From Lepisosteus oculatus (lineage: Eukaryota; Chordata; Actinopteri; Semionotiformes; Lepisosteidae), in NCBI RefSeq assembly GCF_040954835.1, contig NC_090716.1, positions 8,510,775 through 8,574,774 on the forward strand: a DNA stretch of 64,000 nucleotides, written 5' to 3'. The position numbers and the translations under genes were made by a program. Shown in pieces: positions 24,101 through 30,100 of the stretch. The notes beneath the pieces are model-generated. The model was not told the origin of the DNA, ran no database searches, and saw only the letters and a list, made by a program, of their open reading frames with translations. Each line of letters opens with the position of its first letter. The first letter of the stretch is position 1.

Positions 24101-27100
24101 ATGTGAGTTTTTAAATGTGAGTTTAAACCAAAACCACAAACATCTATGAACTAAACATTGAAATGTTTGTAATGAAAAATCTCAACAGTATTAAATTCTA
24201 ATTGCATACTTGAGTGAATATAAAAAAGACTAAACTACCAATTTTTTATATTTTCAATTGAAAATGAAGTAATGACGTAAGAGTGTATGAATTTTCATCT
24301 TAACAAGATGTTAACGTACATAAATATGAAAAATACCCTTATTTCTATTACTCCATAAATTTGGATTAATAGAAACTGATATAGGATAACAGAAATTTTT
24401 CACATGCTTGATATTATAAATCCTGATGTTGCAGTGTATTGTAAGCTGGACTGGTTTACAGGAGCTCAATATTTATAAATAATATACAGAACAATTATTC
24501 TCCACAATAATATATCAGGGGAAAAAAAAAGAAGTAAAATCAACAAAATCAACGCTAGTGATATTCCTGTCCCACTTTCACATTTAGCTTGTACAAGGGA
24601 ACAGGAAGGCCAATCAGCAACTGGTAGGAAAGTGAACTGTTTGAAATGTCTATATATTCTTTACAATATCCTGAATTGATTGTTTAATTGTTTCGTTCAG
24701 GCTTATTTTCCAATGTGCTCACTTTCCTTCCAAGATTGACTCCAATTCGGATTAAAACAAGTGAGGAGAAGAAAAGGATATCACAAACCCACCTCTGTGA
24801 AATGACTGCAATGAAAAGGGTGGAAAACATTTTTCTAGTCTTTTCAGGTCAGCAAGCCCCATATTTAAAGCCCCCTTTTGAATGCTTCTTGAAAATTTCT
24901 TTGGAGAGAGAACCAGTTCATTTAAGATTGTGATGGGGGGAAATTCAAACAATGGGGAGATGGCTTTTTACACTACAACAGCATCCCTGAAGATAAATTA
25001 AAAAAATGATCCATCACATCTGTTGACAAATTGCATTTTGTAAATGCATTTGATGTTTCAACATTACTTGAATTGGATCTACATTTTTTAGCATTGTAGC
25101 AATGAGGGAAATTAGAAAAATGCATTAAACACAAGGAATGGGAAATGTTGATTGTTGCAAATTGTGATCAGTATAAGAATATAAAGATTTTATTTAATGG
25201 GCCTTGATTGGGGATGCTGACAGATTGCTGACGAGCCCAGAAATGATCTGTCATGTTAACACAAAAGATGAACCGACACTAATACCACATTAAAGACCCA
25301 TACCAGATACTAACAATTTCGAGATATGTTACGTTTTAATTTTACTATATATATATATTATACAAATAAAGCCCAAAAACTTTAAATCTTTACTTCTTAG
25401 GAACATAGCATGAGTCTTTGCAGTAGTTGCAAGTAAGAAAGAAAATTATTGTAAATTAACAGGCTTTTGCATTGTAAAAATAATTCAGTTCATTGCTTTA
25501 CCTATGTTTTGTAACGCAATGTTACTTTAATTTTGTAACACTCTTAGATGAACGTATACAGTATATAGCACTGTTAAATGTATTATTTAGAAACAGAGCT
25601 CCAAAGATAAACAGCTTCTTATATGCTAAATATTTATTCCGCAGATTACAGTAGGCAGTATCCAAACAATGTCACCATTTTCTAGCTAGGTTCATTTTGA
25701 ACAACATAGGACTAAATATCAATTGAGCATGACTCTGCGAAATGAATTATCATCCTTATCTGCTGTACATTTCCCACAGTCACATCCAACAACTAGTTAC
25801 AACTTCTTCTAAAATATTTTACTTAATAAATCAATACTGTTTGGATATAGACTAAATGTTATTAATAACACAGTTGGTGTTTCTGTACCATTTATTAACA
25901 TACAAGGAAACAATTCTATTACACGGTTTATTCTGCTTATTGTGAAGAACTATGAATGTGAACACATCCCTGCCTTCTTGTATTTACAATGTAGGCAGAA
26001 AAACACATTTAAGATCAGTCATAAGAGCTACATAAGACACCTGTAGAGATATAGCAAACTCAAACAAGAGTAAGTATCTGGTATTGGTCCAATAACCGAA
26101 AGCCCAATAACTCAGAAAACTAGCCAATGTGCTCGGGCACTTGGTATCCAGTATCGGTCAGACTGCACTGAAGAGTATGTTAATTCCTCCTCGCAAAGTG
26201 CCAGAGTGAAAGAGGAGACTGGCACTTAGAGATAGTTTAGAGGTCACTTCGAAAGACTTAATGGCATGGCTTACTTAAGGAATGGCTTCAGTGTTACTTT
26301 GCTCCACCGATCCAGGCTCAAGAAAATAGGGGCAATAATTTTTTTAAGCATAGAAAAATTTAAAAATTAAAAAGAAAAACCTTTTTAAGCAGAATGTTTA
26401 ATCTGATCACACTCATCGCAAAACAAGTCAACGTAAGATACTCCTACTACAGTAGGAGTGGTGTAGGGAGAATACTTTTCTCTTTCAAAGCATTAACTCA
26501 ATTCTCTGTCTACAAAGCCAGCATATACTAGAGGACATGCTTTGCCTTTTTTTTTTATGAAGCGAAACCATTCCCATGCTTCATTACACAGCGTGTTAAT
26601 AGCATTATGCCAAGTCCAATGCCATAAAGTCAAGCAATGATTGCTTGCCTCCTCCACCACTACAAAACCAGCACCAGCGTGGACTGCAGCACTGATCGCC
26701 TTACCGGGGCTTCTGACCCGTCAACCTTAGATACCCATCATACAGCAGCGCAGGTACTGTATGACTGACTGTGGTCCAGTACTGATTCGTAAAGGGGTTG
26801 GACCGAAGGTTAACATTGGGACGCCTGAAAGCCTGTTCTAAGGGGTTCATCTTGAAGGACACATTTACATAATACTCTGCAGAGAAAATATAATCAAAAC
26901 CTTAAAGATACACTTTAATAAATAAAATAACATACAGAGTAAGAATGCAGAACTAGGACTATGGAAGTCTTGGATCTTTAGAAGGCAGCAAGCAGAGTTC
27001 TACTTGTTTGCAAGAAGATGGTGACTCCGTTAGTCCTTTACGTTATGCATTCTTGTCTCTATGTATTTATGAAACACATGGAGGGCAACATTTTGGCTGC

Positions 27101-30100
27101 ACTGAAAGGCTGCGGGCTGAAACGATAACAACAGGGGGCTGAGCAAGTTGAATTTACCTTGGTGTTCTTCCTGTTATCCTGAGGTAGATATCATATAGGA
27201 ATGCTGGTGCCTTGTGGCTTACAGCAATCCAGTATTGATAGATTAGGTGACTGGATGTGAGATTAACATTGGGCCGTCTGAAGGCCTGCTCGAGTGGGTT
27301 CCTCTTGAAAGTAGATATAACATGGTACTCTAAGAGAGAAAAGTGTTGTGATAGTATAACGTTTTCAAAGTATCTCTAACCTCAAACGTGGAACAGAATT
27401 ATTGCATCTGATAGTTATTTTAACATATGCTGCGGGACACTCACTTAGTTATAAACATTGGTGTGCATTTCTAATAAACAACAAGACATCAATTTCATTT
27501 TCTAGCACTTTTCAAATGCAGTACACTAAAAGGGTTATCTCTATGGCCTTATTTATTGTTAACAAAACAGCTGCATAGCAAGATACAATACTCCATATAA
27601 AAAACAATTTGGCATTTGAGAGAAAATATTTAACATAATGTACGATGCTTACCTATAAAACTCTTAATGATTCAAAACATTGCTTTGGAGAAAATGCAAT
27701 AAGCAACTGTAAAATCATTCTTAAAAATGTGTTACATATGGATGACCATTTTTGTTGGGAGTTGAATGCACAAAATTAAGTTGCGCAGTGGTCTGTAATT
27801 AAGTGGACATGGGCCAGTGGCTCTCATAAATGATCATCAGAGACCACTGCGTCTGCTGGTTTTAATTCCAACTGAGTCCTTAATCACTGGTGATACCTGG
27901 CACATATAAATGATCTGCTTGCCTGATTTGAGTTTTTTTTCCCCCCAGTCATTTATTTCAAATATAGCACTACTAAATCATATGATTTTAAATGTCCCCA
28001 GCATATTGAATTTAATGCAACCTCTCCTCAATTTCCTAATTAGGAATTTATTTGTGATTAAAATATTATTGATGAGTTGATATTGAACAAACACAGGTGG
28101 GAATGTCAATATATGAAATAGTCCCACAATGTGCTTTTGTTTTTTCCTTCTGCTTAAGTCCATTTGGTTACAGTTCAGATAACACACCTAAACTTAGGGC
28201 AGTTCTGAAACTTGGTACAAGTTGATGCTAAAAAAACTCTGAATATTTTAGAGGCTGAAACAAAATTGGACAACACAAATAAAACAGAAAACTGAAATAG
28301 ACGTTCTTCTGATTAAAATCTTGGCTGAAGCATAAAAGACTAAAAAGAGCTGAAAACAATACAAGTCTCAAACAAATTCTATTACTAGGTCAATTAAGGG
28401 CTTAATTATGTGACTAAGAACTCAGTTAGACCAAACCAAGCAGGGATGGATGTTTCCAATACCCAGAGTGGGAATCCTTAACCCTTAATTCTGACAAAAT
28501 ATGCAGGTGGGACACTACTCGTATCCCATTTGCAGGCCTCCTCTACAAAAAACAAAGGCTTTGAACCAGGAATCAGCTCAACCTTGGGTTTGGAGACTGA
28601 AGATAATTATATATAATAACCAGATGAAGCAGATGCACACCAGACTAAGCAATGTCAGGGTAACTGAAATGGTTTCAAAACTCAGTACCTCAGCAACTTC
28701 TCCCTGTTTCAGCTGAGCAGGTGTGCAGCATATAAACAAAGGACTTCTGTTTGCCAGTTCTATGATCCGCTCATGTAGAAAGAGGTATCCAGATTCCTGG
28801 CTGCACTGGGGTTTAAACTAAATGACATACTTCGACTCTTAACAAACATGCAGGTAAACTTGAACAGATCTTTATAGATCCTCTTTCATTAAAAACTATT
28901 ACTCATGAGAATGGTGGCCCTGCAGATGATCTGTCTACATGACCACTTTATGAGTCAGGGCCACTAACTTTTGTTGGAGAAATTTTAAAAATAGAAAAGC
29001 ATACTTGTCTACAGGGTCCTAAATAAACTGTTTCTATTTCTTGATCATTTGTAATATAAAATGCATCCATACCAACTTCACCCCAGTGAAAGGGGTTGAC
29101 GCCACCTGTTGTGCAGTTGTACACCAACACACTTCTTGGCCTGTAAAGCCAAACATAAGAATAAGAACATGGGTAAGGTCACAAACACAGGCCACATGGT
29201 CTTCTTGCTCATTTTGCTAGTTTCTTATTGATCCTGAGATCTTATCTAATCTTTTCGCAAAGAATCTCCCAAAAACAGCTTCAGAGTGCGGCTGGGAAGT
29301 TTGTACGAAACATGCAGTATTTACACAAAAGGGGTTGTGCATCAAATCATGCCTTGCTAGAGCATCATGACATAATTTTGCAACATGGCAATAACATAGA
29401 TTCTTAAACAACAAATAGGATTTCTTTCCTTTTACATAATTAAACATTTATTTAGTTTAAAAAAAAATCTCAAGCCATTAAGAATAAAGAGAAGAAATCA
29501 CCTGGTATATCTGTGAACTCCAGAGTACCATGCTGCAGCCAGTGTAGTATTGATGACTACGTCTACTGGGACAAGATCTGCTACAGCACTATTAGAGGCT
29601 CTCATTGTACGAAGGATTCCCTTTCCAGCCTACAAGTAACAGACAGCACTGAAAAAAACCTTTTCTCAATACTATATACAGTTTTAAAAAATCTTTTAGG
29701 GGTAAACTAAGAAAATAAATAACACACCTCACTTTTCTTCTATTCATTTATTTACCTTGGCATATGGTGAGGATTTTATGAATATATAAAATTGTTACTC
29801 AAAGTGCTGTTTCTTCAAGGTGTATAAGCAGACAGGCTTAGGTTGGGTAAACAAGGCTGACACTACTAACGCCTGTCCTCACTACTATGCAGATAATAAA
29901 GCCTCCACAGGTTTTTCATACTATTCGGATAATATAAATCAAAACAATCACACCTCATTAAAAAGTGTATTTGGTTTAAAAAAACTTGCATTGATAGTAA
30001 ATAGTCAGTTTCCAACCAGACTGTATAAACTGTATTAGGTGCAATGTCAACGATGTAACCCATTTCTCCCTGCTTACGCAAAATGACACATTTCTAAAAC

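What the first reader, a model, noticed from the sequence alone, without database searches (positions are those of the whole stretch)
26705..27329. Mutually exclusive exon pair in a FAR gene, one version FAR1-like and the other partly FAR2-like
Two adjacent exons of identical length (172 bp) and phase encode alternative forms of the same 57-residue segment. Both have consensus splice sites and open frames. Using both shifts the frame to a quick stop, so the pair works as a switch. The shared core is [13 protein letters not shown]. Differences cluster at the start (HVISTFKR versus YVNVSFKM) and at [15 protein letters not shown] versus [15 protein letters not shown], likely near substrate binding or the membrane face. 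Version B shares NxFTxQYW and YLRLTGxKP with FAR2, suggesting the exon duplication is old, perhaps before or near the FAR1/FAR2 split, or that gene conversion occurred.
Basis: partly seen in the sequence, partly recalled or inferred. Interest (0 to 1): 0.7.

Follow-up and report, generated by a model that had tools for sequence, protein, structure and literature searches.

The report
Known alternative exon pair in FAR1
A vertebrate gene for making fatty alcohols carries two interchangeable versions of one exon; the pair is real and old, but the same swap was already reported in chicken in 2011 and in human in 2017.

Summary
FAR1 lies on the minus strand (11 coding exons, counting one of the pair). 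Exons A (27329-27158) and B (26876-26705) are both 172 nt, same phase, with AG/GT flanks; each gives an open 518-aa protein, while using both or neither gives an early stop. Over 56 whole codons 36 residues agree; codon positions 1 and 2 are conserved (44 and 43 of 56), position 3 is near random (19 of 56): old, and held as protein.

It is not new. [quoted passage not shown] Human FAR1 exons 9a/9b were reported in 2017, 9b eightfold lower (PMC5740500). Our exon maps to that range.

'B partly FAR2-like' does not stand: this genome's FAR2 has one 172-nt exon here, nearer A (45 of 58) than B (40 of 58). Recent gene conversion is not supported. Whether the duplication precedes the FAR1/FAR2 split is unresolved. 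Chain-length choice is weakened by the chicken test. Splicing in this species was not observed.

The parts
27158..27329 (-). FAR1 exon A (human exon 9a type), 172 nt, GT-AG
   Evidence: 53 of 58 residues as in recalled human FAR1
26705..26876 (-). FAR1 exon B (alternative exon, 9b type), 172 nt, GT-AG
   Evidence: 38 of 58 residues as in A
26877..27157 (-). intron between A and B, 281 nt
   Evidence: folds at z -3.45
29073..29140 (-). FAR1 coding exon 7, the shared upstream partner
23585..23714 (-). FAR1 coding exon 9 of the model, the shared downstream partner
21145..34270 (-). FAR1 coding region, start codon to stop codon
   Evidence: NAD_binding_4 at 15-284 and Sterile at 360-451 in both isoforms

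Best explanation
This is the FAR1 exon pair already reported in chicken (exon 9 and its substitute) and human (9a/9b), seen here in a vertebrate that is probably not an amniote. The spliceosome joins coding exon 7 to A or to B. Both exons are 172 nt and enter in the same phase, so double inclusion or skipping shifts the frame and makes an early stop more than 250 nt before the last junction, which is expected to trigger nonsense-mediated decay. Either choice gives a full-length fatty acyl-CoA reductase that differs at 20 of 58 positions in the stretch between the Rossmann part and the start of the Sterile (FAR_C) domain. Shown here: sequence, frames, age and constraint. Inferred: that both routes are used in this species, that protein factors regulate the choice, and that B makes a working, probably less abundant variant that tunes the enzyme's regulation more than its chain-length range.
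For: Gene model and frames. Saturated synonymous sites with conserved protein sites in both copies. Exon position: 964 nt precede it, so it covers residues 322-379; less the three-residue insertion at the end of exon 6 this is 319-376, the range given for the chicken variant. D365, the human 9a disease residue, falls at column 47 of the exon by the recalled human sequence and is D in A, B and FAR2. Chicken cDNA of both forms, both active in yeast; human RNA-seq support.
Against: No RNA from this species was examined. The letters of chicken's substitute exon and of human 9b are in supplements not read, so that B is their counterpart rests on position, length and phase, not on a sequence comparison. 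Why exclusion is so strict, beyond the frame, is not explained by any mechanism tested.
Confidence: 0.9

Rival explanations
1. Exon B is a dead relic of a duplication that is no longer spliced in.
For: No RNA evidence for this species; B is the more changed copy against FAR2 (11 against 6 columns), though not significantly (P 0.23).
Against: Synonymous sites are saturated (NG86 dS undefined for A-B, 3.19 for B against FAR2) while dN is 0.24 and 0.23; frame and both splice sites are intact; chicken and human express a substitute exon.
Confidence: 0.03
2. The pair is a switch of acyl-chain preference, B making FAR1 act more like FAR2 (C18 rather than C16).
For: The differing residues lie between the Rossmann part and the Sterile domain; a few B residues equal FAR2. 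Bird FAR1 prefers C16 and FAR2 C18.
Against: In chicken the database form gave results 'very similar' to the substitute-exon form in yeast, and the latter still prefers C16; FAR2 is not nearer B than A. The data of the database form were not shown in that paper.
Confidence: 0.12
3. Exon B arose or was altered by gene conversion from FAR2.
For: FAR2 equals B at 4 of the 5 differing columns in the last fifteen residues (the fifth matches neither).
Against: B and this genome's FAR2 exon agree at 116 of 172 nt and at 26 of 56 third positions, no more than scattered similarity; A-FAR2 is higher overall, 125 of 172.
Confidence: 0.03

Closest known systems
Chicken FAR1 splice variant GgFAR1 / GgFAR1db (PMC3265415)
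   [quoted passage not shown] both forms active
   Different: Other species; its letters were not compared with exon B
Human FAR1 exons 9a/9b (PMC5740500)
   Same: Mutually exclusive pair in the same gene; the disease residue of 9a falls inside exon A's range
   Different: Human 9b sequence not seen; supported there by RNA-seq, here by DNA only
Tandem duplicated exon substitution events of vertebrates (PMC9741552, PMC4465641)
   Same: Adjacent homologous exons swapped one for one, mostly ancient
   Different: FAR1 does not occur in the main text of either paper

Membership tests
Mutually exclusive homologous exons | Adjacent homologous exons, equal phase, intact splice sites | tested here: met
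Mutually exclusive homologous exons | Double inclusion or skipping does not give the protein | tested here: met
   early stops at codons 401 and 323
Mutually exclusive homologous exons | Transcripts carry exactly one of the two | not testable with these tools
   no RNA data for this species
FAR1 (fatty acyl-CoA reductase 1) | NAD_binding_4 plus Sterile domains | tested here: met
   both isoforms
FAR1 (fatty acyl-CoA reductase 1) | Groups with FAR1 rather than FAR2 | tested here: met
   29 informative sites against 11 and 7, outside the exon, with recalled human sequences
FAR1 exon 9a/9b pair | Same place in the protein as the published pair | tested here: met
   residues 322-379 here = 319-376 without the three-residue insertion
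FAR1 exon 9a/9b pair | Exon B aligns with published chicken or human substitute exon | not testable with these tools
   sequences are in supplements; none could be read
Exon B as a FAR2-type exon | B closer than A to FAR2's exon | tested here: not met
   own FAR2: 45 of 58 with A, 40 of 58 with B; recalled human FAR2: 33 of 58 with each

The most novel reading that the evidence does not exclude
The exon duplication predates the FAR1/FAR2 split: the ancestral vertebrate reductase already had two swappable forms, FAR2 lost one of them and kept an A-type exon, and isoform B preserves a version of the enzyme older than the two genes.
Probability: 0.3. Interest if true: 0.35.

Novelty: already known. 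Interest (0 to 1): 0.17.

Why it matters
FAR1 supplies the fatty alcohol for ether lipids and plasmalogens; a human mutation in exon 9a causes disease, and 9b has been proposed to soften it (PMC5740500). An intact, constrained pair in a distant vertebrate says that both forms have been kept for very long, so B probably does something A does not; what that is remains untested. Otherwise this is one more species for a known pair.

Tried and rejected
Steric exclusion: the A-B intron is 281 nt and the best branch-point-like site of B lies 18 nt from its acceptor, so donor and branch point are far more than 50 nt apart. Distant branch point: B's AG-free zone is only 22 nt. Minor-spliceosome mismatch: both exons have plain GT-AG sites (all; donor scores there use recalled frequencies). 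Splicing-factor motifs (names and consensus recalled) in the pair plus 400 nt each side: YGCY 24 against 14.3 expected from a mononucleotide shuffle was the largest excess in number; not followed. Competing pairings: 10 inverted-repeat pairs in 5,358 bases, none compelling. Intron hairpin: the whole intron folds at z -3.45, the hairpin picked from it at z -5.29 (chosen after the fact); one place in the genome (1 candidate scored), no Rfam match; but in 6,388 minus-strand windows it ranks thirteenth (tied) among sites kept apart in 64 kb, so it is no evidence of function. Other vertebrate FAR1 DNA: none found in viral contigs or genome contigs. A third exon copy in the window: none, next tblastn match E 0.22. 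A B-like remnant beside the FAR2 exon: none, next match E 0.33. PDB: best match is a fatty acyl-CoA reductase chain, 7eoz, weak over this exon. Structure prediction was not run: the spliced protein is not contiguous in the window.

Papers seen: PMC5740500 (outline, sections 7 and 9, passages); PMC3265415 (outline, sections 5, 6, 7 and 9, passages); PMC9741552, PMC4465641, PMC12149581 and PMC8919083 (passages only); PMC7954323 (term search, no occurrence); the others in search listings only. PMC4494069 is not held. No supplement was read.

Full report
What is there. The window holds the coding region of FAR1 on the minus strand. Recalled human FAR1 aligned piece by piece from first to last residue; the exact model joins eleven exons per isoform and gives 518 aa with exon A or with exon B. 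Pfam finds NAD_binding_4 at 15-284 and Sterile at 360-451 in both. A spans 27329-27158, B 26876-26705. Each is 172 nt, enters after the first base of a codon and ends two bases into one. With both, the frame stops at codon 401; with neither, at codon 323; the stops lie 363 and 253 nt before the last junction.

More than chance, and old. Over 56 whole codons 36 residues agree. Codon positions 1, 2 and 3 agree at 44, 43 and 19 of 56. Of the 36 codons for shared residues 14 are identical, about 12.75 expected if synonymous codons were drawn at random; even in the identical core [14 protein letters not shown] 8 of 14 codons differ. Synonymous sites are thus saturated while protein sites are held: an old duplication with selection on both copies, and no sign of recent gene conversion.

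FAR2 in the same genome. The genome (1.20 Gb, 813 contigs, unnamed) gave NAD_binding_4 matches only at this locus and on contig C7 (8 matches, 11 of 11 candidates scored) and Sterile matches at the same two places (4 matches, 6 of 6 scored); the tool calls such counts lower bounds. The C7 gene was modelled with the same exon phases and one 172-nt exon at C7:55925124-55925295. Outside that exon 29 informative sites group the window gene with human FAR1 and C7 with human FAR2, against 11 and 7 for the other pairings (human sequences recalled), so it is FAR2; against this simple label, its overall identity to recalled human FAR1 (72.2%) exceeds that to recalled human FAR2 (63.2%), as expected if mammal FAR2 evolved fast. 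Its exon agrees with A at 45 and with B at 40 of 58, A with B at 38. At the 20 columns where A and B differ it equals A at 11, B at 6 (columns 27, 31, 44, 52, 55, 56) and neither at 3. Recalled human FAR2 splits 5, 5 and 10. The Sterile profile, which begins at residue 360 and so sees only the last third of the exon, scores B 4.5 to 5 bits above A. So A changed mainly at its C-terminal end and B over most of its length; neither is the FAR2 version. Which states are ancestral is inferred without an outgroup.

When did it duplicate? Before this lineage and ours parted: A agrees with recalled human FAR1 at 53 of 58 and with B at 38. The window's FAR1 (form A) is 81.7% identical to recalled human FAR1, whereas bird and mammal FAR1 share 89-93% (PMC3265415), so the animal is probably not an amniote; the species was not identified. 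Relative to the FAR1/FAR2 split the answer is open: A and B are further apart than A and FAR2, which favours an older duplication, but a faster B explains it as well and the rate difference is not significant (11 against 6, chi-square 1.47, P 0.23).

What is already known. A search for FAR1 with mutually exclusive exons and fatty acyl-CoA reductase listed two papers, PMC5740500 and an unrelated plant paper. PMC5740500 names human FAR1 exon 9a with its disease mutation D365G and a novel exon 9b in the same tissues at eightfold lower level. [quoted passage not shown] In our isoforms the exon covers residues 322-379; this gene has three extra residues at the end of exon 6, which brings it to 319-376. 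[quoted passage not shown] That is evidence that both are active reductases, and against a strong chain-length switch.

How it works. Shown here: intact sites, frames and constraint. From established knowledge: products of double inclusion or skipping would be removed by nonsense-mediated decay; [quoted passage not shown] Set aside here: steric crowding, distant branch point, spliceosome-type mismatch. Regulation by trans-acting proteins is the remaining default and is not shown. A hairpin in the intervening intron is of a strength seen about a dozen times in the window. The most likely role of B is a less abundant variant tuning stability, membrane contact or partner binding on the FAR_C side; this is inference.

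Verdict. A correct reading of a real feature that was already reported in two other vertebrates; the extra claim of FAR2 kinship is not supported.

Noticed in passing
29502-29510: FAR1 coding exon 6 is 128 nt against 119 in this genome's FAR2, a nine-base donor-side extension that adds three residues (YTR) absent from recalled human FAR1 and FAR2.
   Followed up: partly
23714 (minus-strand acceptor): The acceptor after the pair has the lowest pyrimidine fraction of the 11 scored (0.53; next 0.59); may or may not bear on the choice.
   Followed up: no
26941-27054: A 114-nt hairpin in the intron between A and B (about -40 kcal/mol), found at one place in the genome; of a strength seen about a dozen times in the window.
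   Followed up: yes
27766-27890: Another strong predicted hairpin upstream of exon A, with an inverted repeat 27784-27799/27836-27851.
   Followed up: no
728-7210: Minus-strand reading frames matching Trypsin (three) and CUB (one), as in an ovochymase-like gene downstream of FAR1 (the gene name is recalled).
   Followed up: partly
53987-54956: Plus-strand reading frames matching ZP-N and the ZP-C domain: a zona-pellucida-type gene.
   Followed up: partly
34646-35038 and 52629-53037 (part also 45671-45738): Dispersed repeat, 84-90% alike between copies in its three blocks; class not determined.
   Followed up: no
60608-61115: Minus-strand frames that look like the end of a LINE reverse transcriptase (recalled resemblance; the one frame scanned had no Pfam match).
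   Followed up: no
own genome C7:55888001-55968000: The FAR2 region is 46.6% G+C against 36.5% in the FAR1 window.
   Followed up: no
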